NCBI GenBank assembly: GCA_023384575.1
Contig: JAHDVP010000008.1
Location: forward strand, 63,977 to 105,338
DNA from: Acidobacteriota bacterium
GTDB lineage: Bacteria > Acidobacteriota > Vicinamibacteria > Vicinamibacterales > JAFNAJ01
Direction: 5' to 3'
DNA length: 41,362 bases
In this document: positions 12,562-31,170 of the stretch, one piece after another
Layout of the letters: each line of letters opens with the position of its first letter
How positions within the stretch are numbered: the stretch's first letter is position 1
The notes under the pieces: generated by a model
Databases searched by the model: none
What the model saw: the letters and a program-made list of their open reading frames with translations, nothing else
Told to the model about the DNA's origin: nothing
Made by a program: the position numbers and the translations under genes

Positions 12562-13590
12562 TCACCGCTGGACGCGGCCTGAGGCGTCGCCCCTTGCGAG
12601 GCGATCGACCTCGTCGACCGACACGCGGTTGAAGTCGCCGGGAATCGTCTGCTTGAGCGCACTCGCCGCGACCGCGAAGCGCAGCGCGGCCTCGGGCGTC
12701 CGTCCCGTGACGAGGCCGTAGATGAGGCCCGCGGCGAAGCTGTCGCCGCCGCCAATGCGATCGACGAGCCGCACGTCGTAGTGCTGGCTGACGTGGAACT
12801 GGCCGCCGGCCGCGTCCCACATCGCCGCGCTCCAGCCGTTGTCGCTCGCCGACAGACTCTCGCGCAGCGTGATGGCGACGATGGCCGGGCCGAAGGTCGT
12901 GCTCACCTCCGCGGCCACCTCCCGATAGCCGTCGACATTGAGCTGACCGCTCGTCACGTCGGTCTCGGGCACGTGCAGCCCCAGCACCGACTGGATGTCT
13001 TCCTCGTTGGCGATGACGACGTCCACGTGCCGCATGAGCGGGCGCATCGTCGCCTGCGCCTGCGCCTCGGTCCAGAGCTTCTTCCTATAGTTCAAGTCGA
13101 CGCTCACACGGGCGCCGGCCGCCTTCGCGGCGGCCATCGCGTCGGCGGTGTTGGTCGCCGACCTGGGGCCGAGCGCGGGCGTGATGCCGGTCACGTGGAA
13201 CCAGGCGGCACCGGCGAACACCGCGGACCAGTCGACGCTGCCGGGCTCGAGCTCGCTGATGGCCGAGTGCGCGCGGTCGTAGACCACGGTCGACGCCCGC
13301 TGGCTCGCGCCGGCTTCGGCAAAGTAGATGCCCACGCGCTCGCCGCCGCGCACGAGCAGGTCGGTTCGGACGCCCTCGCCCCGCAGCGTCTTCACCGCAG
13401 CATCCCCTATCGCGTGCTTCGGCAGGCGGCTGACGAAGCAGCTCTCGAGACCAAAGTGCGCCAGGCTGACCGCGACGTTCGCCTCGCCACCGCCAAACGT
13501 GGCAGACAGGGTTGGCGACTGGAAGAAACGCTCGAACCCCGGAGGGCTCAGGCGCAGCATGATCTCGCCGAAGGTCACGACTTTGGGCAT
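12562..13590 (-). CDS. kdgK: 2-dehydro-3-deoxygluconokinase (KDG kinase), PfkB family
   Basis: This 342-residue ribokinase/PfkB protein phosphorylates 2-keto-3-deoxygluconate to KDPG in the cytoplasm. It opens MPKVVTFGEIMLRLSPPG, typical of KDG kinases, followed by the GGGEANVAVSLAHFGL PfkB signature. The C-terminal signature DRIGGGDSFAAGLIYG carries the catalytic base D283. VSVDLNYRKKLW and IANEEDIQSVLG are also characteristic. The start ATG (13590-13588) overlaps the stop of the aldolase gene by one base (TGATG), so the two are translationally coupled. Substrate assignment comes from family resemblance plus the KDPG aldolase partner; fructokinase is the main alternative. Confidence 0.88.
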   Translation of the reverse strand: MPKVVTFGEIMLRLSPPGFERFFQSPTLSATFGGGEANVAVSLAHFGLESCFVSRLPKHAIGDAAVKTLRGEGVRTDLLVRGGERVGIYFAEAGASQRASTVVYDRAHSAISELEPGSVDWSAVFAGAAWFHVTGITPALGPRSATNTADAMAAAKAAGARVSVDLNYRKKLWTEAQAQATMRPLMRHVDVVIANEEDIQSVLGLHVPETDVTSGQLNVDGYREVAAEVSTTFGPAIVAITLRESLSASDNGWSAAMWDAAGGQFHVSQHYDVRLVDRIGGGDSFAAGLIYGLVTGRTPEAALRFAVAASALKQTIPGDFNRVSVDEVDRLARGDASGRVQR

Positions 13591-14249
13591 CAGCGTGTCT
13601 CCCGCGCCGCCTCGACGCTGGCGACGATGGTCCTGGCATTCGTGGTGATGACGCCGAAGTCGCCTGCGGCGATGGCCTTGGCGTCGAGCAGCGCCGTGCC
13701 GACGCCCACCGCGACGGCGCCGGCCCTGATCCAGTCGCCAGCGTTCGTGAGCGAGACGCCGCCGGTGGGCATCAGCTTCACCTGCGGCAGCGGCCCGCGG
13801 ACGTCCTTGAAGAACCCCGGCCCGAGGGCGGTCGCGGGGAACACCTTCACGACGTCGGCGCCGGCCTCCCAGGCGGCGAGAATCTCGGTCGGCGTGAAGC
13901 AGCCCGGCATCGCGGCCACGTCGTAGCGGTGGCATATCGCGATCACCTCAGGCCGGAAGACCGGACTGACCACGAAGCGCGCCCCGGCGAGGATCGCGAG
14001 CCGCGCCGTCTCGCTGTCGAGCACGGTGCCCGCGCCGAGCAGGAAGCCGGGCGGGAGCGTTGGCGCCAGTTGGCCGATCATCTCGATGGCGCGCGGGACG
14101 GTCATCGTCACCTCGAGCGCGCGCACGCCGCCCTCGGCGAGTGCGTCTACGACGCCCCGCAGTCTGTCCGGATCCTTCAGGCGGATGACCGCCACGACCC
14201 CGTGTTGTTCGATGGCCCGCGTCACGTCCACGCGGCTGGTGACTGTCAT
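13590..14249 (-). CDS. eda: KHG/KDPG aldolase
   Basis: This 219-residue class I aldolase cleaves 2-keto-3-deoxy-6-phosphogluconate to pyruvate and glyceraldehyde 3-phosphate. The family motifs are present: HGVVAVIRLKD at the N-terminus, RALEVTMTV with catalytic E46, LLGAGTVLDSETARLAILAG, the Schiff-base lysine K135 in VVKVFPATALGPGFFKDV, and the phosphate-binding LMPTGGVSLTNAG. The start is ATG at 14249; an upstream in-frame extension is Arg-rich and not credible. It precedes kdgK with a 1-nt overlap, and the pair forms the lower Entner-Doudoroff-type branch of the uronate locus. Its own promoter is probably the strong one at 14642-14671, read through the decayed gene in between. Confidence 0.93.
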   Translation of the reverse strand: MTVTSRVDVTRAIEQHGVVAVIRLKDPDRLRGVVDALAEGGVRALEVTMTVPRAIEMIGQLAPTLPPGFLLGAGTVLDSETARLAILAGARFVVSPVFRPEVIAICHRYDVAAMPGCFTPTEILAAWEAGADVVKVFPATALGPGFFKDVRGPLPQVKLMPTGGVSLTNAGDWIRAGAVAVGVGTALLDAKAIAAGDFGVITTNARTIVASVEAARETR

Positions 14250-14278
14250 GGCAGGGTGCTCCGTCGTGCTGGTCGTCG

Positions 14279-14619
14279 TCAAACGGCGTGCCGTCGGCAG
14301 TCGTACGTGCCTTCGGCGTCGTCGGTGAGAGACAGAAGGGCGTCGGTCACGCGCTCGCCCACGGACCGGCGTGGAAGGCGCGGCCGCGTCAGCAGTGGCG
14401 CGGCCGTCGGTCGAGGCATCTGGCGGTGCCACGGCGCCATGGCCCCGTGGCGGTCGTGAAGGATCGAGGGCAGGCCGGACCCGTGGCGGGTCGAGAGGTC
14501 GCGGGCCACTGAGCCCCACGACCGGAGTCCGGCGACAGGCGGAACACCGGGCCCCGGTGGACGCGCCGGCCGTCGCACACGGCGATGCCGTCGCGTGCGG
14601 TCGTGCGGACGAGATCCAT
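14279..14619 (-). pseudogene. Decayed first gene of the eda-kdgK operon
   Basis: Thirty bases downstream of the operator, an ATG at 14619 starts MDLVRTTARDGIAVCDGRRV with almost pure G/C third positions. After about 30 residues the frame loses coding character. A second coding-like piece, GERVTDALLSLTDDAEG to a TGA at 14279, lies in a different frame just before eda. I read this as a gene with an internal deletion and frameshift. The first residues resemble the opening of fumarylacetoacetate-hydrolase-family proteins (M-L-RT..GIAV.DG), which often sit in sugar-acid loci, but this is weak. A genuine short peptide cannot be excluded. Confidence 0.4.
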
Positions 14620-14641
14620 GGCATTCCCACATGACGTCGAG

Positions 14642-14671
14642 ATACTACAATTGGAGCGACCAATTTTTCAA
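14642..14671 (-). promoter_or_regulatory. Promoter of the eda-kdgK operon with embedded operator
   Basis: On the minus strand TTGAAA (14671-14666) and TAGTAT (14647-14642) are separated by exactly 18 nt. The spacer is filled by the perfect palindrome AATTGGAGCGACCAATT (14649-14665 on the plus strand). A repressor bound there would block RNA polymerase. The core TGGAGCGACCA (14652-14662) fits the TGG-N5-CCA pattern seen at four further sites up to the GntR gene. Confidence 0.65.
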
Positions 14672-14819
14672 GACCTCATGATAGGCCGCAGGTCAGCCTG
14701 TGTCGCCTGCCTCGAAGGTCCTTCGAGAGATCTGGTCGTCCGACGCCAAATTCCTGGAATAATGTCTGCAATGTTGCGTATCGTGTGGCCTGCCGCGGCG
14801 CGGTCGTGACCATTGTCAT

Positions 14820-14832
14820 GTGGTATGTCCAC
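14820..14832. promoter_or_regulatory. GntR-type operator-like site GTGGTATGTCCAC
   Basis: This near-palindrome has core TGGTATGTCCA (14821-14831), the same TGG-N5-CCA spacing as the operator in the eda promoter. It is close to the TnGTnnnACnA motif of FCD-type GntR regulators. It lies in the divergent control region with no coding sequence around it. Confidence 0.4.
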
Positions 14833-15005
14833 TTCTCGGTCCGCGGCCGAAGTCGAGAAGACGACGGGTGCTGGCCTGCGTGGGATCGACCGGCCCCCGC
14901 GTCAGGATCGCCCCACACCCGCGCGGTCGGCAGGGCGAACCGCCGAGCTGGCGGGGTCGTGAACCCCGTCGGGGTGCCGGCCGACCTCAGCTGGCGACTC
15001 CCCAA

Positions 15006-15018
15006 CTGGATAATCCAG
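15006..15018. promoter_or_regulatory. GntR-type operator-like palindrome CTGGATAATCCAG
   Basis: This is a perfect 13-bp palindrome about a single central base, with core TGGATAATCCA (15007-15017). It shares the TGG-N5-CCA pattern. It lies roughly midway between the two divergent promoters, where it could support looping between flanking operators. Confidence 0.4.
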
Positions 15019-15154
15019 ACGCCAAGCGAGGCAATCTCTGGCGTCCGGGCGGGCCGGGTCTGGCGCCATCCGTCAACGTGCGGATGGAGGCCTGTTTGTC
15101 GCCTCGTTGGTTCGTATGGCGTTTGCGATGCGAGGCCGAGTCGAGAGTTCCCTG

Positions 15155-15186
15155 TTGACCATCTCGAGGTAAGGTGGTATTACCTC
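15155..15186 (+). promoter_or_regulatory. Promoter and operator of the GntR-SDR-UxaA operon
   Basis: TTGACC (15155-15160), a 17-nt spacer and TATTAC (15178-15183) form a good sigma-70-type promoter. A perfect 7-bp inverted repeat, GAGGTAA (15166-15172) and TTACCTC (15180-15186), covers the spacer and the -10 box. Within it TGGTATTACCT (15175-15185) fits the FCD-GntR motif TnGTnnnACnA at every position except the last and closely resembles half of UxuR/ExuR boxes. Autorepression by the adjacent GntR protein is the natural reading. The transcript would have a 5' leader of about 95 nt. Confidence 0.6.
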
Positions 15187-15274
15187 ATGTCAGCCACGTC
15201 GAAGTGGTGCGGCGATGCTCCGTGGGGCGGTCGCGCGCAACCGAGGCTTGGCCTTGGGCGCATTGTCCTCTAAT

Positions 15275-15285
15275 TGGCTAGACCA
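15275..15285 (+). promoter_or_regulatory. Operator-like site TGGCTAGACCA at the GntR start codon
   Basis: This fifth TGG-N5-CCA site ends one base before the ATG at 15287. A protein bound here could block transcription or initiation. The gene has no recognisable ribosome site at this position. Confidence 0.4.
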
Positions 15286-15286
15286 G

Positions 15287-16033
15287 ATGTCGAACCTCTC
15301 GGAGTCCACCCGCGATCACCCGGGGGGCGAGTCGGCGCCCACCGGCAGCACCGGCCTGGTCGTGGCGTACGTCCGGGGTCTCATCGACCGCCGCGGCTTG
15401 CGTCCGGGCGACCGCCTGCCGGGCGAACGTGACCTGGCCGCGCAGGTGGGCGTCAGTCGGCCGACCGTGCGCGCGGGGCTGAGGGCTCTGGCCGCCATGG
15501 GTGTCGTGCAGTCGCGCCACGGGTCGGGCACGTACATCCCGGAAGGATCGCCTCAGCTCGGGCGCGAGGCGCTGCGCTTCCTGGCCGCCCTCCACGGGCT
15601 GACGCGCGAGGAGATGTACGAGGCGCGACGGATCCTCGAGATCGGCGCGGCGGGACTCGCCGCCGAACGGGCGACCGCCGACGAGATGGCCACGCTGGCG
15701 GAAGAGGTTGCGAGCCTGTTCGCGTCGCTCGATGATCCGGTGCGTTTCCTCGACCACGACATGGCGTTCCATCGGGCGGTCGCCGCGGCGTCCGGCAACC
15801 CGATCGTCGCCTCGCTCGTCGAGATGGTCGCCGGCCTCTATCGCGACCGCCGCCGCGTGACGGCGGGGCAGGCGTCCGATCGCGACCTGCGCGACGCCGC
15901 CGACATGCATCGGCGGATCTACCAGGCCATCCGGGCACACGACCCCGTGGCGGCCCGCGCGGCCATGCACGATCACCTCGTTCAAGCCAGCGCCTGCCAG
16001 GCGCAGGAACCGGCCGGAGCGCCGGCGTCGTGA
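15287..16033 (+). CDS. GntR-family (FadR/FCD) transcriptional regulator of uronate genes
   Basis: This 248-residue regulator has an N-terminal winged helix (LRPGDRLPGERDLAAQVGVS, then RPTVRAGLRALAAMGVV and SRHGSGTYI). A C-terminal all-helical FCD ligand-binding domain begins near residue 95. The FCD metal-ligand pattern is visible: an Asp/His set in FLDHDMAFHRAVAAASGNPI and histidines in DMHRRIYQAI and AAMHDHL. Relatives include UxuR, ExuR and DgoR, which sense sugar acids or their keto-deoxy products. The start ATG 15287 follows the operator cluster; an upstream ATG at 15215 lies within the leader and is less likely. The stop overlaps the SDR start (GTGA). Confidence 0.88.
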   Translation: MSNLSESTRDHPGGESAPTGSTGLVVAYVRGLIDRRGLRPGDRLPGERDLAAQVGVSRPTVRAGLRALAAMGVVQSRHGSGTYIPEGSPQLGREALRFLAALHGLTREEMYEARRILEIGAAGLAAERATADEMATLAEEVASLFASLDDPVRFLDHDMAFHRAVAAASGNPIVASLVEMVAGLYRDRRRVTAGQASDRDLRDAADMHRRIYQAIRAHDPVAARAAMHDHLVQASACQAQEPAGAPAS

Positions 16034-16803
16034 CGCTCTCGCTGTTTGACCTCACCGGCCGTGTCGCCGTCGTCGTGGGCGGCACCTCGGGCATCGGGCG
16101 GACGCTGGCGCTCGGCCTGGCGGCGGCCGGCGCCGACGTCGCGGCGACCGGCCGCCGTGCGGCGCTCGTCGACGAGGTCAGCGGTGAGATCGCCCGGCAC
16201 GGTCGGCGCACGCTCGCGATGGCGGCCGACGTGGCCGATTCCGGCTCGCTCGTGCGCCTGCGCGAGCGCTGCCTCGAGACGTTCGGCCGGATCGACATCG
16301 TCGTGGCGGCGGCGGGGATCACGAAGCGCGTGCCTTCGAGCGAGATGGGTGAGGGAGACTGGCAGCGCATCGTCGACACCAACCTGACGGGCACGTGGCG
16401 GACCTGCCGGGTGTTCGGCGCGCCGATGCTCGAGCGCGGCCACGGGCGTGTGATCACGATCGCGTCGCTGTCGTCGTTCGTCGGCCTGCACGAAGTGGCG
16501 GCCTACACGGCGAGCAAGGCCGGCGTGGCCGGGATCACGCGTGCGCTCGCCGTCGAGTGGGGCGCGCGCGGCGTCACCGTGAACGCGCTCGCGCCAGGCG
16601 TCTTCCGCACCGACATGAACGAGACCCTCCTCGATTCGCCGAGGGGACGCGAGTTCCTGATGCGCACGCCGATGGCCCGGTTCGGCCGGCTCGACGAACT
16701 GGTGGGCGCCGCCGTGTTCCTCGCCTCGGAGGCCGCGAGCTTCGTCAACGGCCACGTGCTCGTCGTCGACGGCGGGCTGCTGGCGAGCGGGGTCAACCAG
16801 TGA
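16030..16803 (+). CDS. SDR-family oxidoreductase, KduD/gluconate 5-dehydrogenase-like
   Basis: This 257-residue classical short-chain dehydrogenase has LFDLTGRVAVVVGGTSGIGR (dinucleotide-binding GxxxGIG), NAG-type motif VAAAGITKR, catalytic Ser in SLSSF and the YxxxK pair Y159-TAS-K163. The C-terminus is IVDGGLLASG-like. Nearest known activities are KduD (2-dehydro-3-deoxygluconate 5-dehydrogenase) and gluconate 5-dehydrogenase, but it might instead reduce a keto-uronate such as tagaturonate. Context, not sequence, suggests the uronate role. The GTG start overlaps the GntR stop by 4 nt, and its own stop overlaps the next gene in the same way, showing tight coupling. Confidence 0.85.
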   Translation: MTLSLFDLTGRVAVVVGGTSGIGRTLALGLAAAGADVAATGRRAALVDEVSGEIARHGRRTLAMAADVADSGSLVRLRERCLETFGRIDIVVAAAGITKRVPSSEMGEGDWQRIVDTNLTGTWRTCRVFGAPMLERGHGRVITIASLSSFVGLHEVAAYTASKAGVAGITRALAVEWGARGVTVNALAPGVFRTDMNETLLDSPRGREFLMRTPMARFGRLDELVGAAVFLASEAASFVNGHVLVVDGGLLASGVNQ

Positions 16804-17186
16804 CGGCCATCCTGCGGATCAGCGAGCGGGACAACGTCGCGACGGCGCTCGAGGCGCTCGATCCGGGGCGCGAGGTCGCCGCCGGCGACCTCGTCGTCGT
16901 CGTGCGGGAACGGATCCCGGCCGGTCACAAGGTGGCGCTCGCGGTCATCGAGGCGGGGGCCCAGGTCGTCAAGTATGGCAGCCCGATCGGCGTGGCCTGC
17001 CGCCGCATCGGCGCCGGCACTCACGTGCACGTGCACAACATCGTGAGCACGCGGGGGCGGGGCGACCTCGTCGAACAGGAGCGGCCCGGACCGGCGGTCG
17101 CGCGGCTCGCCGAACCCGATGGTGAGACCCCGGGGCGCACCGACGCTGCCGCCCGGCGCGACGAGGCGGAGGGCACGGCATCATGA
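16800..17186 (+). CDS. uxaA: UxaA-type dehydratase small subunit (SAF domain)
   Basis: This 128-residue protein corresponds to the N-terminal SAF domain of altronate/galactarate dehydratases. It reads ALDPGREVAAGDLVVVVRER, then IPAGHKVALAVIEAGAQVVK, YGSPIGVACRRIGAGTHVHV and HNIVSTRG, where the HxHN segment is characteristic. In E. coli UxaA this domain is fused to the catalytic part; here it is a separate gene, as in sulfolactate sulfo-lyase SuyA/SuyB. The last 30 residues are an Asp/Arg-rich tail. GTG start at 16800 (GTGA overlap with the SDR stop); its stop overlaps the ATG of the large subunit (ATGA). Confidence 0.85.
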   Translation: MTAILRISERDNVATALEALDPGREVAAGDLVVVVRERIPAGHKVALAVIEAGAQVVKYGSPIGVACRRIGAGTHVHVHNIVSTRGRGDLVEQERPGPAVARLAEPDGETPGRTDAAARRDEAEGTAS

Positions 17187-18358
17187 GCGAGCGCGCCGGC
17201 TTCTTCGGCTTCCCCCGCCCCGATGGCCGGGTGGGGGTGCGCAACCACGTGCTCGTGGTCCCGACGGTCGTGTGCGCGTCGGTGGTGTGCGAACGGATCG
17301 CCGCGCAGTCGGGGTCGTCGGTCGTGGCGTTACCGCACCAGGCCGGGTGCGGCCAGCTCGGGCCCGACATGTGGACGACGCACGACACGCTGGAGGCCTA
17401 CTGCGGGCATCCGAACGTCGGCGCCGTGGTCGTGGTCGCGCTCGGGTGCGAGCAGGTCGTGGCGCAGCAGCTCGCAGGCGCCGCGCGGGCGGCGGGGAAA
17501 CCGTGCGAGGTCGTGGCCATTCAGGCCGAGGGCGGATCGTTGCGCGCGGTCGCGGCCGGGACGGCCATCGCCTCGCGTTTGGCCGGTGAGCTCGCGCCGG
17601 TGGCCCGCCAGTGGTGCGGCATCGACACGCTCGTGCTCTCGCTCAAGTGCGGCGGCTCCGATTACACGTCTGGCCTCGCCTCGAACCCCGCGCTGGGGCG
17701 CGTGGCCGACCGCCTCGTCGATCTCGGTGGCGCGACGGTCCTCGGCGAGGTCGCCGAGATCATGGGGGCGGAGCACCTGCTCGCCGCGCGCGCGGCCGAG
17801 CCCGAGGCCGCCGTGCAGCTCGTGCGCATCGTGGATCGCGTGGAGGCCGAGGCGCTCGCGCTGGGGCTCGACATCCGCGGCACGCAGCCGTCGCCCGGCA
17901 ACATCCGCGGCGGGCTCACGACGATCGAGGAGAAGTCGCTCGGCGCGACGCACAAGGGTGGCGAGACCTCGCCGCTCACCGACGTCGTGCCCTATGCGGG
18001 CCGGATCACGCGCAAGGGGCTGACGGTGATGGACACGCCGGGGCTCGACGTCGAAGCCGTGACCGGCATGGTGGCCGGCGGCGCGCAGGTGGTCGTCTTC
18101 ACGACCGGGCTCGGCACGCCGACCGGCAATCCCATCGCGCCCGTCATCAAGATCACCGGCAACCGGCGGACGGCGTCGCACATGGCCGACAACATCGACC
18201 TCGACGTCAGTGGCATCATCGGCGATCGCGAGACACTGCAGTCGGCGGCCGACAGGCTCTTCGATCTGGTCCTGGCGGTCGCCTCGGGCGGGCCCGTCGC
18301 CGCCGAATCGCTCGGCCACCGCGAGTTCGCCATCCACCGGCGCAACCCCACGATCTGA
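17183..18358 (+). CDS. uxaA: UxaA-type dehydratase large subunit (altronate/galactarate family)
   Basis: This 391-residue catalytic subunit of the UxaA/GarD family depends on iron or another divalent metal. It opens FPRPDGRVGVRNHVLVVPTV, typical of the family, and has the metal- and substrate-binding segments LPHQAGCGQ, ALGCEQVVAQQ, SLKCGGSDYTSG and TTGLGTPTGNPIAPVIKI. It probably converts altronate (or a related aldarate) to 2-keto-3-deoxygluconate, which the divergent kinase and aldolase consume. Sulfolactate lyase is the alternative for split systems, but the KDG kinase and KDPG aldolase favour a sugar acid. Last gene of the operon; a strong hairpin follows. Confidence 0.88.
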   Translation: MSERAGFFGFPRPDGRVGVRNHVLVVPTVVCASVVCERIAAQSGSSVVALPHQAGCGQLGPDMWTTHDTLEAYCGHPNVGAVVVVALGCEQVVAQQLAGAARAAGKPCEVVAIQAEGGSLRAVAAGTAIASRLAGELAPVARQWCGIDTLVLSLKCGGSDYTSGLASNPALGRVADRLVDLGGATVLGEVAEIMGAEHLLAARAAEPEAAVQLVRIVDRVEAEALALGLDIRGTQPSPGNIRGGLTTIEEKSLGATHKGGETSPLTDVVPYAGRITRKGLTVMDTPGLDVEAVTGMVAGGAQVVVFTTGLGTPTGNPIAPVIKITGNRRTASHMADNIDLDVSGIIGDRETLQSAADRLFDLVLAVASGGPVAAESLGHREFAIHRRNPTI

Positions 18359-24081: not shown

Positions 24082-25929
24082 TCACCTCGCCAGGCCGAGC
24101 GGACTGAAGACGATGTAGAGGGCCACGGTGGCCACGACGACGGCGACGCCCGCGATCTGCGCGCCGCGCGAGGTCTCGAGCGTCAGCCGGGTGTGGGTCT
24201 GGAACTCCACCGGCTGGGCCAGCGGCCAGGCGACGCCGATGGCCCACATCACCGCGAGGACGGTGAAGAAGCAGATCGCCATGCGGTCGAGAAACGCGAT
24301 GTCGGGCCACAAGGTCGCGATCGCGAAGTAGAGCACGGGGTTGAGCAGCAGGCCCACCACGCCCGCCGCGCCCGGCGCGCGGCGGTTCGCCAGGCCGAAG
24401 ACGAACACGGCGAGGATGCCCGGCGAGACGTAGCCCTGGAACTCCTGGATGTACTTGAAGATGCTGCCGAACTGATCGAGCAGCGGCGCCACGAGACACC
24501 CGGTGAGCGCGAAGACGCCGATCGAGACGCGCCCGCACGTGACGAGGCCGCGCTGCGACGAGGCGGGGCGGACGTACTTCTGGTAGATGTCGATGGTGAA
24601 GATCGTGGCGGCCGCGTTCAGCACGGCCGCGAGCGAGCTGACGATCGCGCCGAGCAGCGCCGCCAGCACGAACCCGACGAGCCCGCTGCCCTGCGGCAGC
24701 ACGTTCTTGATCATCAGGTTCAGCGCCGCGTCGAACTTGTACCCCGACCGGATCGGCGTTTCCGTCACCGGGCGTCCCGACGCCCGCACGCGCGCGTTGT
24801 GCGCGCCGACCCGCGCTGCCAGGTCGGGGTGGCGCCCGGCCCACTCGTCGGTCACCGTGAAGACCGTGACCGAACGGGCGCTGGCGACCTCCCGCAGGAT
24901 CGTGCGCTCGTTGGCCCGCTCCTGCGCGGCTGCGAGGTCGGCGCTGTAGAGATTGAACGCGATGATGCCCGGCACGACGACGATGAACGGCACGAGGAGT
25001 TTCAGCGCTGCGGCGAACACGATGCCTTTCTGCCCTTCGGCGAGCGACGCGGAGCCGAGGATGCGCTGCGTGATGTACTGGTTGAGCCCCCAGTAGTAGA
25101 AGTTCGGGATCCACAGCCCGACGACGAGCGCGGTCCACGGGATGTTGAGATCGGCCCGCGGCAGGATCATGCTGAACTTGTCGGGGTTGAGCGCGAGCAG
25201 CTTGCGCACACCGCCCGCCGCATCGGCCACCTCACGCGGATTGAGGCTCCCGGCGGTGAGCTCGGCCACCGGCGTCGCGCCCAGCTTCGCGATGGCCAGG
25301 TAGGTGATGATCGCGCCGCCGATCAGCAGCGCGGTGCCCTGCACGAGGTCGGCCCACGCCGAGGCGTTGAGCCCGCCCGCCGCGACGTACACCGCGGCAA
25401 TCAGGCCGATGATCCAGCACCACGCCGCCAGGCCGAGCTGGACCCCGAAGACGGTCTGTCCGGCGAACAGCTCGCTCATCGTCAGGCCGCCGGCGTAGAT
25501 GATGGCGGTGAGCGAGACGCCGATCAGGATCACCATCATGCAGAGCGACATGAGGGTGCGGCAGGCCGCGTTGTAGCGGTGCTCCAGGAAGTGCGGCATC
25601 GTGAAGATGCCGGTCTTGAGGAAGTAGGGCAGGAAGAAGAACGCGACGACGACCAGCGTGATGGCGGCCATCCACTCGTAGCTGCCGATGGCCATGCCCA
25701 GGTAGTCGGCCGCCTGGCCCGACATCCCGACGAACTGCTCGGAGGAGATGTTGGCCGCGATCAGCGATACCCCGATGAGCCACCACTTCAGGCCACGGCC
25801 CGCCAGGAAGAACGACTCGCTGTCTCTGCCCTCCCCCCTGCTCTTGAAGAGCCCCAGCGAGACGACCGCCCCGATGAAGGCGAAGAAGACGACCAGGTCG
25901 AGGGGGAGGATGCGGAACGTCTCGGTCAT
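24082..25929 (-). CDS. Sodium:solute symporter, SGLT-like
   Basis: This 615-residue membrane protein of the SSS family has about 14 hydrophobic segments. Characteristic pieces are ESFFLAGRGLKWWLIGVSLI in the first core helices, NISSEQFVGMSGQAADYLG, the GGLNASAWADLVQGTALLIG segment and the sodium-site helix region SLAAVLNAAATIFTIDIYQK. Sequence style is closest to sodium/sugar cotransporters. A soluble insert of about 90 residues lies between TM8 and TM9 (LYSADLAAAQERANE to SGYKFDAAL). It starts 84 nt after the acyl-ligase stop on the same strand, so co-transcription is likely, but it has no visible ribosome site. Substrate unknown: sugar, or an organic acid used by the acyl genes. Confidence 0.88.
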   Translation of the reverse strand: MTETFRILPLDLVVFFAFIGAVVSLGLFKSRGEGRDSESFFLAGRGLKWWLIGVSLIAANISSEQFVGMSGQAADYLGMAIGSYEWMAAITLVVVAFFFLPYFLKTGIFTMPHFLEHRYNAACRTLMSLCMMVILIGVSLTAIIYAGGLTMSELFAGQTVFGVQLGLAAWCWIIGLIAAVYVAAGGLNASAWADLVQGTALLIGGAIITYLAIAKLGATPVAELTAGSLNPREVADAAGGVRKLLALNPDKFSMILPRADLNIPWTALVVGLWIPNFYYWGLNQYITQRILGSASLAEGQKGIVFAAALKLLVPFIVVVPGIIAFNLYSADLAAAQERANERTILREVASARSVTVFTVTDEWAGRHPDLAARVGAHNARVRASGRPVTETPIRSGYKFDAALNLMIKNVLPQGSGLVGFVLAALLGAIVSSLAAVLNAAATIFTIDIYQKYVRPASSQRGLVTCGRVSIGVFALTGCLVAPLLDQFGSIFKYIQEFQGYVSPGILAVFVFGLANRRAPGAAGVVGLLLNPVLYFAIATLWPDIAFLDRMAICFFTVLAVMWAIGVAWPLAQPVEFQTHTRLTLETSRGAQIAGVAVVVATVALYIVFSPLGLAR

Positions 25930-26013: not shown

Positions 26014-28821
26014 TCAGGGATTTGACTTCACGGGGGCGTCCGAGATCAAGCCTGGCCTGGCGACGATGGGCGACTCGCCGGAGTGTTCGGCGATGAACGC
26101 GCGCGCCTCGTCGCGCAGGCGTACCATTTCGTGCCATGTCGCCTCGCGCGCGACGAGGGGAGCGCCGACGCGCACGACGACGTCGCCAGGCGTGAGCCGC
26201 CAGGTCTCGTCGGGCCAGATGTCGCGCGGCCCGCGCAGCGCCACCGGCACCACGGGCACGCCGGCGTCGACCGCGACGCGGAAGGCGCCCAGGCGAAACG
26301 GCAGCAGCCCGGGGGGGCGGACGAAGGTGCCCTCGGGGAAGACGAAGAGCGGCCGGCCGCGCGAGAGCGCGCCCGCCAGCGCCTCGGTCGCCTCCGTGCG
26401 GCCGCGTTCGACGAGCACGCACTCGATCTGGCGGATGGCCCGACCGAGCGCCGGGTACGACGCCAGCCGGTCCTTCGCGGCGAACGCCGTGTCCTCCGGC
26501 AGCACCGCGACCAGCACGAGCGCATCCAGGTAGCTGCCGTGGTTGGCCACGATCACGGCCGGACCCCGGGAAAGCGCCGCCGCGCCATCGATGGCGACAC
26601 GGCACCTCGCGAGCGCGAGCAGGGCTCGACACGCGCGCCGCACGACGCGACGGCTCGCATCGCCTGCCGGCGCGAGCATCAGGGCTGCCCACGTCGCCGG
26701 GACGACGATCGCCAGACACCCCACGGCCCATCCGGTGTAGAGCACCGACCCGATCCATCGCCACGCCCGGCGGGCCCGCCACCGCGCCGCCGCCGCCACC
26801 AGGGCGAGCCACTGCCCGATGGCCCGCTTCCCGAGGCGGCCGAGCGTGCCCCGCTCGAACAGCGCGCGTGTCTCGGCTCGTCTGATCTTCCCGCTCGAGG
26901 TCTTGGGTATCGACCCTGGCGCAACCAGCGCGACCGCATCGGGCGGCAGGCCCACCTGCGCGGCGACCCGAGCGACGATCTGCTGCCTGATGCGCGAGAT
27001 CGAGGCTTCCTCGTGCTCGCGGGTCTCAGCGGCCACGACGAGCTGCTCCGTACCGGCGGCCGTGCGTGCCCCGAAGGCGGCCACGCACCCCCGCCGCACG
27101 CCTGGGACGCCGGCCACGGCGTCCTCGATCTCCTGCGGGTACAAGTTCCGTCCCCCGACGATGATCACGTCCTTGCGGCGGCCGGTGAGGTAGAGGTCGC
27201 CGTCGGCCAGATAGCCGAGGTCGCCGGTGTCGATCCACCCGTCGTGCACGATGGCGGCGGTGGCTTGTGGGTTGCGGTAGTAGCCTTGCATCGCCGAGGG
27301 GCCGCGGAATTCGACGCGGCCTTCCACACGGTCGTCGACCCTCCGGCCCTCCGCGTCGACGATGCGCACCTCGTGCCCCGGGATCGGCCGGCCGCACGCC
27401 ACGAACTCGAGCGCCGAGCTGTCGGCGTCGTCGGCCCGCTCGATGCGCCGCGCCTGCTCGAACGGCCCGCGCGCCACACGATCGACGACGGGGGGGCGGC
27501 CCGTCGGCGGCGCGGTCACGCAGAGACTGGCCTCCGCGAGTCCGTAGACGGGCATCATCGCCTCCCGGCGGAACCCGTGCGGGCCGAACCGGGTGACGAA
27601 CGCCTCGAGGGTCGCGGCCCCAATGGCCTCGGCGCCGTTGAGGGCGCAGCGCCACGTCGAGAGGTCGAGCGTCGCGGCATCGGCCTCGCTGATCTTCCGC
27701 ACGCACAGCTCGTACGCGAAGTTGGGCGCCGCGGCCAGCGTGGCGCGGTGCCGTCCGAACGCCTCGAGCCATCGCACCGGGCGGGTCAGGAACGCGAGCG
27801 GCGACATCACGACGATGGGGATGCCGTGGAAGAGCGGGCCGAGCCAGGCGCCGATGAGGCCCATGTCGTGATACAGCGGCAACCACGTGACGCCGACATC
27901 GTCGGGACGGATGCCGAGGGCCTCCCCGTAGGCGCGGATGTTCGCGAGCAGGTTCGCGTGCGAGAGCGCGACCCCTTTGGGCTGGCCGGTGCTGCCCGAC
28001 GTGTACTGGATGAGCGCCAGGTCGGCGCCGCGACCCCCCGGTGCGGCCACGTGGACGCCCGGGCGCGCGATGGCGGCCACCGTCGAGACGACCTGCACCG
28101 ACGGCGCGTGAGGCCTGAGCAGGTCGGCCACGCGGCGTGCCTCGTCGAACGTGAGGAGCACGCGCGCCTCGGCGTTCCGAAGGATCGCCGCCTGCCGCAT
28201 CGCGTACTCCTCGATCTGGTCGGCCCGAAACGGCGGGTAGAGCGGCACCGGCACGCCGCCGGCGATCAGGACACCGAGGAACGCCTGGAAGAAGGCGCGT
28301 TCGGTGCGGAGCAGCAGGGCCACCGTCTCGGCGGGGCGCAGACCACGCTCGACGAGGCCGGCGGCCACGGCCGTCGCGTCCATCCACAGCTCGCCGTAGG
28401 CGATCGACCGCTCCTCGTCGCCATCCTCGCGCAGCACCATGTGTACGCGCTCGGGTGTGCGCTCGGCGTGCCAGCGCAGCGCCTCGACGAGCGTGCTCGC
28501 CCCGCCCGGGGCGAGGGTGCCGTGTGCGGGCAGGACCGCCGCCGGCGCGGCCGTGCCTCTCACCCTCAGGGGCTCTGCGTCGAGCACCCTCGCCAGGTCG
28601 CGAGGGGTGAGTGCCTCCGCGACGGCCTGCTCGTCGAGCCGGGCGCCCGTCGCCTGCTCGAGGCGCAGCAACAACTCGACGCGCTCCAGGCTGCCGAGCC
28701 CGAGGTCGCGGTCGAGCCGATCGGTGGGCTCGACGGGACCGACGCGGTCCGGCCACAGCTCGGCGACCAGGCGCGAGACGACGTCCACGACGACCCGGTC
28801 GTGCGGCGACGGTGCGGTCAC
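26014..28821 (-). CDS. Three-domain ACP - fatty acyl-AMP ligase - PlsC acyltransferase fusion
   Basis: This 935-residue protein starts at a GTG (28821-28819) that overlaps the lyase stop (GTGA). Residues 1-85 are an acyl carrier domain with LGLGSLERVELLLRLE; S44 is the phosphopantetheine site. Residues about 100-680 form an adenylating domain with LIQYTSGSTGQPKGVALSHA near 270, LPLYHDMGLIGAW, PVYGLAEASLCV, DTGDLGYL and GRKDVIIVGGRNLYPQE. YHDMGLIG and YGLAEASL are marks of fatty acyl-AMP ligases rather than CoA ligases. A hydrophobic stretch (about 700-735) leads to a PlsC domain with NHGSYLD (HX4D, about 758) and FPEGT (about 827). It probably activates a fatty acid, loads its own ACP and transfers the acyl group to a lysolipid at the membrane. 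E. coli Aas has related parts in the opposite order and lacks an ACP. Confidence 0.85.
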   Translation of the reverse strand: MTAPSPHDRVVVDVVSRLVAELWPDRVGPVEPTDRLDRDLGLGSLERVELLLRLEQATGARLDEQAVAEALTPRDLARVLDAEPLRVRGTAAPAAVLPAHGTLAPGGASTLVEALRWHAERTPERVHMVLREDGDEERSIAYGELWMDATAVAAGLVERGLRPAETVALLLRTERAFFQAFLGVLIAGGVPVPLYPPFRADQIEEYAMRQAAILRNAEARVLLTFDEARRVADLLRPHAPSVQVVSTVAAIARPGVHVAAPGGRGADLALIQYTSGSTGQPKGVALSHANLLANIRAYGEALGIRPDDVGVTWLPLYHDMGLIGAWLGPLFHGIPIVVMSPLAFLTRPVRWLEAFGRHRATLAAAPNFAYELCVRKISEADAATLDLSTWRCALNGAEAIGAATLEAFVTRFGPHGFRREAMMPVYGLAEASLCVTAPPTGRPPVVDRVARGPFEQARRIERADDADSSALEFVACGRPIPGHEVRIVDAEGRRVDDRVEGRVEFRGPSAMQGYYRNPQATAAIVHDGWIDTGDLGYLADGDLYLTGRRKDVIIVGGRNLYPQEIEDAVAGVPGVRRGCVAAFGARTAAGTEQLVVAAETREHEEASISRIRQQIVARVAAQVGLPPDAVALVAPGSIPKTSSGKIRRAETRALFERGTLGRLGKRAIGQWLALVAAAARWRARRAWRWIGSVLYTGWAVGCLAIVVPATWAALMLAPAGDASRRVVRRACRALLALARCRVAIDGAAALSRGPAVIVANHGSYLDALVLVAVLPEDTAFAAKDRLASYPALGRAIRQIECVLVERGRTEATEALAGALSRGRPLFVFPEGTFVRPPGLLPFRLGAFRVAVDAGVPVVPVALRGPRDIWPDETWRLTPGDVVVRVGAPLVAREATWHEMVRLRDEARAFIAEHSGESPIVARPGLISDAPVKSNP

Positions 28822-29729
28822 GCGTGTCCCTGGCCGAGGGAGTCCACGAGCGCCAGCAGGGCCCGCGCGCGATCGATCGTCGGCAGATCGATCACGCGCC
28901 CATCGTCGGCGGCCATCCAGGTCTGTCCGGAATCGGCGAGGTGATGCGCGTGGCCGACGACCATCCGGGCCTCGGCGACGGCGGTCGGCGAGAGGCCGAA
29001 GACGTCGTGGACGGTGGCGAGTTGCGACGGGTGCATGCACGACCGGCCGAAGAACCCCAGCCGGCGCGCGGCCTCCGAGGTGCGCCTGAGCGCGTCGGCG
29101 TCGTCGAGCTGGGGGTGCATCGGTGCGATGGGGGGCAGGAGCCCGAGCGCCCTCGAGGTGATGACCAGGTGCGACCTGGCATAGAGCGTCTCCAGGTCAC
29201 CCGCGTCACCGGTGGCGCCGAGGTCGCGCAGGAAGTCGGCCGTGCCGAATGTGAGCACCCGCACGCGCGGTGAGGCCGCAATCGCCGCGGCCTGGAGCAC
29301 GCCGGCCGCGCTCTCGATGGTCGGCACGATCTCAATCGAGCCCTCGCCGAGATTCCGCTCGCGCTCGAGCGCGTTCAGCATGGCGTCGACGGCATCCACA
29401 TCGTCGCGCGATTCGACGTGCGCGACGCGCACGCCGTCGAGGCCCGGTGAGACCACGGCGACCAGGTCGTCGCGCCACCACCCGCTCTGCACGCGGTTGA
29501 CCCGCGACAGCACGAGAGGTCCCGGGCGGCGGCCGCGCTCGTTGAGGACCCTGGCCACGAGCTCGCGGGCGCGCGACTTGTGCCCGGCGGCGACGCCCTC
29601 TTCCAGATCGAGCACCACGGCGTCGGCGCCGGCGTCGAAGACGTCCTGCACCAGGCGTTCGTGGCTGCCCGGGGCGATGAGATACGAGCGGGCCAGGCGG
29701 CGCACCGGCTGGCGTCGTGTCGTGGTCAT
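28818..29729 (-). CDS. HpcH/HpaI/CitE-family lyase (CoA-ester lyase type)
   Basis: This 303-residue TIM-barrel enzyme of the CitE/malyl-CoA/citramalyl-CoA lyase family starts at ATG 29729. It has ARSYLIAPGSHERLVQDVFD, DAVVLDLEEGVA, the CoA/substrate Arg in VLSRVNRVQSGWW, the Mg-binding Glu in EIVPTIESAAGVL and Asp in VLTFGTADFLRDLG, and FGRSCMHPSQL. Such lyases split or form 3-hydroxyacyl-CoA esters to acetyl- or propionyl-CoA plus a keto acid. Overlap with the ACP-FAAL-PlsC gene suggests it makes or removes the acyl unit that the fusion handles. The divergent CoA-transferase could supply its CoA ester. The exact substrate is not visible. Confidence 0.85.
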   Translation of the reverse strand: MTTTRRQPVRRLARSYLIAPGSHERLVQDVFDAGADAVVLDLEEGVAAGHKSRARELVARVLNERGRRPGPLVLSRVNRVQSGWWRDDLVAVVSPGLDGVRVAHVESRDDVDAVDAMLNALERERNLGEGSIEIVPTIESAAGVLQAAAIAASPRVRVLTFGTADFLRDLGATGDAGDLETLYARSHLVITSRALGLLPPIAPMHPQLDDADALRRTSEAARRLGFFGRSCMHPSQLATVHDVFGLSPTAVAEARMVVGHAHHLADSGQTWMAADDGRVIDLPTIDRARALLALVDSLGQGHA

Positions 29730-29973: not shown

Positions 29974-31170
29974 ATGCCCGGACCGTTGTCTGGTCTCCGC
30001 GTCCTCGAGCTCACGAGCGTCGTGCTCGGTCCGCTCGCCTGCCAGATGCTCGGCGATCTCGGTGCCGACGTCGTCAAGGTCGAGCCCCCAGGGGGCGACA
30101 GCAACCGCCGGATCGGACCGTCGCGCGAGCCGCTGATGGGGGTGCTCTTCCTGACCTGCAACCGGAACAAGCGCAGCGTCGTGCTCGACCTCAAGAGCCC
30201 TGACGGACGGGCGGCCTGCCTCCGGCTCGCCGCAGGGGCCGACGTGATCGTGCACAACTACCGGCCCGACGCGCTGCTCCGGCTCGGCCTCGAATACGAC
30301 GCGATCCGCGCGATCAACCCTGGCGTCGTCTTCTGCGGCACCTACGGGTTCGGCCGGTCGGGTCCCTACGCCAACCAGCCCGCCTACGACGATTCCATCC
30401 AGGCAGCCTGCGGCCTCGCCGCGCTGTCGTGGATCGTCGACGGCGAGCCGCGGTACGTGCCGACGATCGTGGCCGACAAGACGACGGCCCTGGCGGTCGT
30501 GTCGGCGGTGACAGCGGCGCTCTTCCATCGCGAACGCACCGGCCACGGGCAGGAGATCGAGGTGCCGATGTTCGAGACGATGGTGGCGTACGTGATGGCC
30601 GAGCACCTCTACGGGCTCGCCTTCGATCCGCCGCGCGGCGCGCCGGGGTACCCGCGCGTCCTCAGCCAGCACCGTCGGCCGTATCGGACCCAGGATGGCT
30701 ACCTCGCGGTGCTGCCGTACCTCGATCGGCACTGGCAGGCGTTCTGCGACGCGGCGGCGCGACCGGACCTCGCGAGCGACACGAGGTTCGCGACGCTCGC
30801 CGATCGGAGCCGACACATCGACGAGGTCTACGCCGAGACGGCCGCCATCGTCGCCACCCGGACCACGGCCGAGTGGATCGCACGGCTCGGGCCACTCGGC
30901 GTGCCGGTGATGGCGGTCAATCGCCTCGAGGACCTCGTGGACGACCCGCACCTCGTGGCCACGCGGTTCTGGCACGTGGCCGAACACCCGTCGGAAGGAG
31001 CGCTTCGCTTTCCAGGCATCCCGCTCGGGTTCTCGGCAACGCCCGGCGCGATCGAGCGCCTGCCGCCGAGGCTCGGCGAGCACACCGTCGAGGTGCTCCA
31101 CGAGGCTGGATTCTCGCCTGAGGAAATTGAACGGCTGATCGCCTCGGGCCTCTCCAACACGACCCGCTGA
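29974..31170 (+). CDS. Class III CoA-transferase (CaiB/Frc/BaiF family)
   Basis: This 398-residue protein begins PGPLSGLRVLELTSVVLGPL and GDLGADVVKVEPPGGD, the family hallmark. It also has NRNKRSVVLDLKSPDGR and GYGFGRSGPYAN-type loops, and the catalytic Asp in AYDDSIQAACGL (D139), which forms the aspartyl-CoA anhydride. It moves CoA between organic acids such as succinate, malate or mesaconate. It is divergent from the CitE-like lyase across 244 nt. The pairing recalls malyl-/citramalyl-CoA cycles in which a class III transferase makes the CoA ester that the lyase cleaves. The ATG at 29974 has a weak ribosome site. Confidence 0.9.
   Translation: MPGPLSGLRVLELTSVVLGPLACQMLGDLGADVVKVEPPGGDSNRRIGPSREPLMGVLFLTCNRNKRSVVLDLKSPDGRAACLRLAAGADVIVHNYRPDALLRLGLEYDAIRAINPGVVFCGTYGFGRSGPYANQPAYDDSIQAACGLAALSWIVDGEPRYVPTIVADKTTALAVVSAVTAALFHRERTGHGQEIEVPMFETMVAYVMAEHLYGLAFDPPRGAPGYPRVLSQHRRPYRTQDGYLAVLPYLDRHWQAFCDAAARPDLASDTRFATLADRSRHIDEVYAETAAIVATRTTAEWIARLGPLGVPVMAVNRLEDLVDDPHLVATRFWHVAEHPSEGALRFPGIPLGFSATPGAIERLPPRLGEHTVEVLHEAGFSPEEIERLIASGLSNTTR

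What the first reader, a model, noticed from the sequence alone, without database searches (positions are those of the whole stretch)
26014..29729. ACP-FAAL-PlsC fusion coupled to a CitE-like lyase
One polypeptide carries an acyl carrier domain, a fatty acyl-AMP ligase and a lysophospholipid-type acyltransferase. That amounts to a self-contained acid-to-lipid machine independent of CoA. Its GTG start overlaps the stop of a CitE/HpcH lyase gene, and a class III CoA-transferase is divergent. This suggests an unusual lipid built or remodelled from a lyase-derived acyl unit, or coupling of keto-acid turnover to membrane lipid synthesis. The domain order differs from Aas and from FadD32-PKS systems.
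Basis: partly seen in the sequence, partly recalled or inferred. Interest (0 to 1): 0.74.

Follow-up and report, generated by a model that had tools for sequence, protein, structure and literature searches.

The report
Widespread three-in-one fatty-acid-to-lipid enzyme
The gene makes one protein that probably picks up a free fatty acid, holds it on a built-in carrier arm and attaches it to a membrane lipid; the same fused protein occurs in many bacterial phyla, and the neighbouring lyase gene that looked linked to it is most likely a chance neighbour.

Summary
On the minus strand, 28821-26014 encodes a 935-aa ACP–FAAL–PlsC protein whose GTG overlaps the lyase TGA by 4 bp; the divergent class III CoA-transferase is also there. 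FAAL identity is well supported: FAAL-specific insertion, conserved FAAL pocket residues, and a predicted structure closest to EcFAAL 3PBK (TM 0.90).

The proposed lyase coupling is not supported. The fusion is widespread (80 loci fetched, several phyla) and 0 of 80 have the lyase nearby. In the window's order (Vicinamibacterales) the fusion occurs in 34 of 162 genomes and the lyase orthologue in 5 of 162; only this genome has both. A sister genome keeps lyase, divergent CoA-transferase and both flanks, but no fusion.

FAAL–lysophospholipid-acyltransferase fusions are already mentioned in print (Patil 2021), uncharacterised. Best reading: a CoA-independent, Aas-like lysolipid acylator with its own ACP. 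New lead: an UMF1/Atg22-family MFS transporter is the commonest immediate neighbour across the family (11 of 135 distinct loci, scattered on the tree), recalling E. coli LplT–Aas. It is not next to the fusion in this window, and Aas-type proteins co-occur with the fusion in some genomes, so acceptor and transporter role remain inferred.

The parts
26014..28821 (-). ACP-FAAL-PlsC fusion gene, 935 aa, GTG start
28537..28821 (-). N-terminal acyl carrier protein domain (residues 1-95), phosphopantetheine Ser44
   Evidence: PF00550 2.9e-6; Ser44 in 52 of 52 homologues; predicted helices 6-22, 44-58, 64-69, 73-82
26812..28536 (-). FAAL-type adenylation domain, about residues 96-670; FAAL-specific insertion within residues 431-476
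   Evidence: PF00501 4.9e-71; best PDB and Foldseek matches are FAALs; NCBIfam top rows PRK07768 (named CoA ligase) and PRK09192 (fatty acyl-AMP ligase), both below cut-off; insertion length
26653..26757 (-). linker and hydrophobic helix region before the PlsC domain, about residues 689-723
   Evidence: predicted helix 667-716; hydropathy maximum at residue 699
26014..26784 (-). PlsC/LPLAT acyltransferase domain (NHxSxxD 760-766, FPEG 828-831)
   Evidence: PF01553 8.5e-28; TIGR00530 88.3 bits, below its 102.95 cut-off; 5KYM PlsC 1.2e-16
28818..29729 (-). CitE/HpcH-like C-C lyase gene; neighbour, probably not a functional partner
29974..31170 (+). class III CoA-transferase gene, divergent; recurrent partner of the lyase
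24082..25929 (-). sodium:solute symporter gene, 84 bp downstream of the fusion and co-directional; no symporter homologue beside the fusion elsewhere
   Evidence: PF00474 4.5e-55; PRK10484 over cut-off

Best explanation
One polypeptide activates a free fatty acid with ATP (FAAL domain), passes the acyl group to the phosphopantetheine of its own N-terminal ACP domain instead of to CoA, and its membrane-associated PlsC domain transfers it to the free hydroxyl of a lysolipid. The most likely acceptor is a lysophospholipid, so it would work like Aas (lysolipid repair, or salvage of free fatty acids into membrane lipid). The lyase next door belongs with its divergent CoA-transferase and is unrelated. 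Shown by sequence or model: the three domains, invariant catalytic residues, FAAL features, separate distribution from the lyase. Inferred: acyl-AMP to ACP transfer within one chain, membrane association, the acceptor, and a lysolipid-transporter role for the UMF1 gene seen next to the fusion in other species.
For: Domains and order. Catalytic positions invariant in 52 of 52 aligned homologues. FAAL insertion interval 43-49 residues in 52 of 52 against 18-19 in FadD and Aas; residues that I matched by eye to EcFAAL T83/P107/P226/T252 (alignment; positions from passages of PMC8460268) are T or S at 173 and P at 197, 315 and 341 in 52 of 52. Model pLDDT 87.8; Foldseek rows 1-27 are FAALs, 3PBK TM 0.90 by target length. 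Four PF01648 phosphopantetheinyl-transferase hits in the own genome. Whole fusion kept in named loci of Pseudomonadota, Thermodesulfobacteriota, Acidobacteriota, Actinomycetota, Planctomycetota, Nitrospirota, Bdellovibrionota and Tectimicrobiota. Aas-like hint: PF11700 (UMF1/Atg22 MFS) is the commonest family among 123 immediate neighbours, 8 of 123; by tblastn it adjoins the fusion in 10 of 80 named loci (one a 92-aa fragment) and in G086 of the window's order; 4-bp overlaps in L080 and L121; E. coli lplT and aas overlap by 8 bp. In the own genome the only UMF1 gene found overlaps by 4 bp a separate PlsC-domain gene.
Against: UMF1 is not next to the fusion in this window nor in most relatives (11 of 135 distinct loci; 0 of 29 further gammaproteobacterial loci), and its presence per genome is not obviously enriched: 36 of 50 fusion genomes against 111 of 162 of the order irrespective of fusion. 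Full-length LplT-PlsC-AMP proteins co-occur with the fusion in 9 of 60 genomes, including two UMF1-linked ones, G170 and G181, so it is not a simple replacement of Aas. The PlsC domain scores best against 1-acylglycerol-3-phosphate acyltransferase, with OlsA-type models close behind the Aas type, so the acceptor is open. No activity was assayed.
Confidence: 0.55

Rival explanations
1. One reading: the fusion and the CitE-like lyase form one pathway in which a lyase-derived acyl unit is built into a lipid.
For: Same strand, 4-bp overlap, so probably co-transcribed in this genome.
Against: Lyase beside the fusion in 0 of 80 named loci and 0 of 59 further loci; both genes in 1 of 162 genomes of the order; the lyase unit is intact in sister genome G003 without the fusion. 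CitE-type products are CoA thioesters or small keto acids, not FAAL substrates (established knowledge).
Confidence: 0.05
2. The PlsC domain acylates lysophosphatidic acid: the protein feeds exogenous or recycled fatty acid into phosphatidic acid rather than repairing lysophospholipids.
For: Best PlsC-domain matches are AGP acyltransferases (TIGR00530 88.3 bits; 5KYM).
Against: TIGR00530 cut-off 102.95 not reached; the genome has further PlsC-like hits, so a second general PlsC with its own ligase and ACP seems redundant; the UMF1 neighbours are unexplained.
Confidence: 0.25
3. The acceptor is not a glycerophospholipid: a lyso-aminolipid (OlsA-like), glycolipid or other alcohol, making a specialised envelope lipid.
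For: OlsA models match the PlsC domain at 53.8 and 50.8 bits, about as well as Aas-type models; 9 of 60 fusion genomes also have a full LplT-Aas, suggesting a different acceptor; no conserved pathway neighbours.
Against: No aminolipid or glycolipid gene recurs beside it among the 25 families listed for 123 neighbours.
Confidence: 0.2

Closest known systems
Bacterial FAAL fused to lysophospholipid acyltransferase, mentioned by Patil et al. 2021 eLife (PMC8460268, passages seen)
   Same: FAAL domain plus lysophospholipid-type acyltransferase in one protein; function not studied in the passage seen
   Different: The passage I saw names no ACP domain, species or neighbours; I could not check that it is exactly this family (supplements not available)
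E. coli Aas with LplT (PMC11416262, abstract and passages seen; genes seen in NC_000913.3)
   Same: Ligase plus PlsC in one protein with ACP as acyl carrier; an MFS transporter gene overlaps aas as UMF1 genes overlap some fusions
   Different: Order PlsC then AMP-binding; no FAAL insertion; ACP is a separate protein; LplT matches MFS_1 and not PF11700
EcFAAL (3PBK) and FadD32-type FAALs
   Same: Adenylation-domain fold, insertion and pocket residues
   Different: No PlsC domain; FadD32 works with a polyketide synthase (recalled)
PlsC / 1-acylglycerol-3-phosphate acyltransferase (5KYM)
   Same: NHxSxxD and FPEG motifs
   Different: Stand-alone enzyme; the domain is below the TIGR00530 cut-off
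Second three-domain protein of the same genome, AMP-binding then ACP then PlsC (L217 2939-5530)
   Same: The same three activities in one chain
   Different: Different order; ligase is FACL-like without the insertion; found in 116 of 162 genomes of the order

Membership tests
Fatty acyl-AMP ligase (FAAL) | FAAL-specific insertion in the N-terminal subdomain | tested here: met
   Interval E430-G477 holds 46 residues here and 43-49 in 52 of 52 homologues; 19 in FadD, 18 in Aas
Fatty acyl-AMP ligase (FAAL) | Pro/Thr-lined alternative pantetheine pocket (EcFAAL T83, P107, P226, T252) | tested here: met
   Equivalent T173, P197, P315, P341, matched by eye on the phmmer alignment; T or S, P, P, P in 52 of 52. 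FadD has N and L at the first two and P at the last two
Fatty acyl-AMP ligase (FAAL) | Transfers acyl-AMP to holo-ACP and rejects CoA | not testable with these tools
   needs enzymology
Curated NCBIfam FAAL subfamilies (PRK09192, FadD32, FadD21, FadD28) | score over curated cut-off | tested here: not met
   PRK09192 458.9 bits of 600 and the FadD32, 21, 28 models far below their cut-offs: a FAAL outside the curated subfamilies
LPLAT/PlsC superfamily | HX4D and EG motifs and PF01553 | tested here: met
   PF01553 8.5e-28 over cut-off; H761, D766, E830, G831 in 52 of 52
1-acylglycerol-3-phosphate acyltransferase (TIGR00530) | score over curated cut-off | tested here: not met
   88.3 bits of 102.95
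Acyl carrier protein | PF00550 with the phosphopantetheine serine | tested here: met
   27.9 bits over 20.8; Ser44 invariant; modification itself not tested
Aas (acyl-ACP synthetase / lysophospholipid acyltransferase) | PlsC then AMP-binding order and curated model PRK08043 | tested here: not met
   Order reversed; the PlsC part scores 37.9 bits of 886
Aas (acyl-ACP synthetase / lysophospholipid acyltransferase) | Acylation of lysophospholipid from acyl-ACP | not testable with these tools
   needs enzymology
Aas with LplT | Neighbouring lysophospholipid transporter gene | tested here: not met
   None in the window; the own genome's UMF1 lies on another contig, C33; 11 of 135 distinct loci elsewhere have UMF1 adjacent
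Citrate lyase beta subunit (neighbour gene) | TIGR01588 over cut-off | tested here: not met
   154.1 bits of 443.4: a CitE-like lyase, not CitE

The most novel reading that the evidence does not exclude
ACP-FAAL-PlsC together with an UMF1/Atg22-family MFS transporter is a second lysolipid salvage system, not orthologous to LplT-Aas: the transporter flips a lysolipid across the membrane and the enzyme re-acylates it with the acyl chain held on a built-in ACP, out of reach of CoA. That would give bacterial UMF1 proteins a substrate class, and would mean this function arose more than once.
Probability: 0.22. Interest if true: 0.7.

Novelty: new member of a known kind. Interest (0 to 1): 0.4.

Why it matters
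The protein family is widespread (80 named loci fetched from 588 confirmed relatives; 46 of 274 sampled gammaproteobacterial genomes). Where plasmid records carry annotation at the match it is called only 'AMP-binding protein' (3 of 9 records), and I found no functional study (8 searches). It predicts a route from free fatty acid to membrane lipid that bypasses CoA, and the UMF1 neighbours give a testable handle on the acceptor and on a transporter family for which I found no bacterial substrate in those search listings. For this window the lesson is that a 4-bp overlap alone should not be read as a pathway.

Tried and rejected
Lyase coupling: tested by neighbourhood, co-occurrence and synteny and rejected. 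The symporter and the CoA-transferase as partners of the fusion: symporter in 0 of 80 loci; CoA-transferase in 1 of 80 (L052, about 3 kb away). Aas replaced by the fusion (mutual exclusion): not seen; 9 of 60 fusion genomes also have a full-length LplT–Aas-type protein. UMF1 enrichment by presence alone: none evident. UMF1 adjacency in a broader gammaproteobacterial sample: only the already known Marinobacter genome, 1 of 30. Clustering of UMF1-linked fusions on the tree: none; 11 rows need 10 changes, shuffled mean 10.6, so linkage is scattered, by repeated gain or repeated loss. Control genes five positions away: ATG22 is not among the 25 listed families of 77 genes; 100 families matched and only 25 are listed, so a single weaker match cannot be excluded. 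Among loci without an adjacent UMF1, none had a UMF1 hit elsewhere in its stretch (best hit per locus kept). Conserved neighbours in the window's order: cyclophilin-type genes beside the fusion in several genomes (Pfam match shown for one) but not in the window.

Rows chosen or dropped: alignment A2 holds 52 of 89 available fusions (window, 7 of 8 order loci, 44 of 80 named loci). The gene caller missed the fusion in about a dozen of the 80 loci, so neighbour counts come from 123 genes; L069 was found only by tblastn. 16 of 80 loci have under 700 bp on one side. The tree has 109 rows (80 named, 29 of 30 order loci; 3 pairs of identical rows). One search used 50 of 79 loci chosen by me, including the 8 UMF1-linked ones then known. 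Loci were returned for 30 of 34 order genomes and for 30 of 46 gammaproteobacterial genomes.
Full report
What is there. Window 28821-26014 (minus) encodes 935 aa: ACP domain (PF00550, 2.9e-6), adenylation domain (PF00501, 4.9e-71), PlsC-type acyltransferase (PF01553, 8.5e-28). The GTG start shares GTGA with the TGA of the lyase gene 29729-28818. A class III CoA-transferase is divergent at 29974-31170, and a sodium:solute symporter follows 84 bp after the fusion on the same strand. The window lies in a 5.89-Mb genome in 112 contigs. Its order is Vicinamibacterales, Acidobacteriota: relative G040 and the named contig OY282382.1 have the same length of 6,125,821 bases and the same fusion sequence.

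Ligase type. The best NCBIfam rows are PRK07768 (named long-chain-fatty-acid--CoA ligase) and PRK09192 (fatty acyl-AMP ligase), both below cut-off; the best solved structures are FAALs. An AlphaFold model from 52 homologues has mean pLDDT 87.8 and pTM 0.80; Foldseek rows 1-27 are FAALs, first 3PBK with TM 0.90 by target length, and acyl-CoA ligase-type entries begin at row 41. The interval that holds the FAAL-specific insertion has 43-49 residues in 52 of 52 homologues, 19 in E. coli FadD and 18 in Aas. Patil et al. 2021 (PMC8460268, passages seen) describe a Pro/Thr-lined pocket (EcFAAL T83, P107, P226, T252) that admits holo-ACP and excludes CoA; the matching positions here are T173 (T or S), P197, P315 and P341, conserved in 52 of 52 (matching by eye). 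CoA rejection itself is inferred.

Acyltransferase. NHxSxxD (760-766) and FPEG (828-831) are present, the checked residues are invariant, and hydropathy peaks at residue 699 in a long helix just before the domain. Alone it scores best with 1-acylglycerol-3-phosphate acyltransferase (88.3 bits, cut-off 102.95), then LplT–Aas-type and OlsA-type models, so sequence does not name the acceptor. The genome has four phosphopantetheinyl-transferase hits, so the ACP can plausibly be charged.

Distribution. In the window's order 34 of 162 genomes have it. Of 274 sampled gammaproteobacterial genomes 46 do. Nine plasmid records carry it, annotated as 'AMP-binding protein' where an annotation covers the match. 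On the tree the window protein is the sister of all other fusions of its order (SH-aLRT 99).

The lyase is a neighbour, not a partner. The lyase was found in 0 of 80 named loci, the symporter in 0 and the CoA-transferase in 1; likewise none in 30 gammaproteobacterial loci or 29 other loci of the order. Lyase orthologues (E <= 1e-60) occur in 5 of 162 genomes of the order, and only the own genome is also among the 34 with the fusion. In G003, same family and without the fusion, the gene order is STAS, regulator, SpoIIE-type phosphatase, YajQ-like, lyase, divergent CoA-transferase, HDOD and further genes, as in the window, but peptidase, symporter and fusion are missing between YajQ-like and lyase (gene names, YajQ-like by eye). 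In G035 and G038 the lyase follows a class III CoA-transferase-like gene directly; G047's contig ends at the lyase. So the lyase–CoA-transferase unit is the recurrent one, and the fusion block was inserted here or lost in G003.

A transporter lead. Among 123 immediate neighbours of fusions in the named loci, PF11700 (Atg22/UMF1-type MFS) is the most frequent family, 8 of 123; tblastn adds L069 and a 92-aa fragment in L093, giving 10 of 80 loci. In the window's order, G086 has UMF1 12 bp after the fusion. Leaving out duplicates this is 11 of 135 distinct loci (80 + 30 + 30, less 5 repeats). Eight of the 11 are co-directional, with 4-bp overlaps in L080 and L121; L103 and L106 are divergent, L119 convergent. 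With about one UMF1 gene in 72% of genomes (36 of 50) and an assumed 4,000 genes per genome, fewer than 0.1 adjacent cases would be expected by chance; relatedness is not corrected for. The linked fusions are scattered (11 rows, 10 changes). E. coli aas and lplT overlap by 8 bp, and LplT flips lysophospholipid that Aas re-acylates (PMC11416262, abstract and passages). In the own genome UMF1 overlaps by 4 bp a separate PlsC-domain gene, and in G003 it also precedes one. Hence the Aas-like reading, with UMF1 in LplT's role as a hypothesis.

Against that reading. UMF1 is absent from this neighbourhood and from most others; 111 of 162 genomes of the order have UMF1 whether or not they have the fusion; and full-length LplT–PlsC–AMP proteins co-occur with the fusion in 9 of 60 genomes, among them two with UMF1 beside the fusion.

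Known or new. Patil et al. 2021 already state that some bacterial FAAL-like domains are fused with lysophospholipid acyltransferases, so the architecture is known in outline. Eight full-text searches (listings seen, three papers opened for passages) listed no functional study of it and none that I could see linking UMF1/Atg22 with bacterial lysophospholipids; subscription papers are mostly missing from that library. I file it as a new member of a known but uncharacterised kind.

Noticed in passing
L217 2939-5530 (own genome G000:C51:32938-35526): A second three-domain protein in a different order, AMP-binding (FACL-like, no FAAL insertion) then ACP then PlsC, 863 aa; present in 116 of 162 genomes of the order. 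The order thus has two different ligase+ACP+PlsC polypeptides.
   Followed up: partly
L172 3989-6705 and L174 4083-6777: UMF1/Atg22 MFS gene followed by a separate PlsC-domain protein gene (4-bp overlap in the own genome), an independent UMF1-PlsC pairing.
   Followed up: partly
window 12562-18358: Sugar-acid catabolism genes: PfkB-type kinase, KDPG/KHG aldolase, GntR/FCD regulator, SDR, altronate/galactarate dehydratase.
   Followed up: no
L046 5071-10594: In another family of the order, separate ACP, FAAL, KAS-like and PLP-enzyme-like genes lie together, read from sequence only: a FAAL used in a different pathway.
   Followed up: no
L137 6280-10581 and L138 5794-10151: Lyase orthologue in an apparent operon with a class III CoA-transferase, a cyclase-like and an MmgE/PrpD-like gene (last two by eye): possible pathway context of the window's lyase.
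   Followed up: partly
L110 5063-6733 and L221 3038-4813: A separate AMP-binding protein gene lies directly upstream of the fusion in some species.
   Followed up: no
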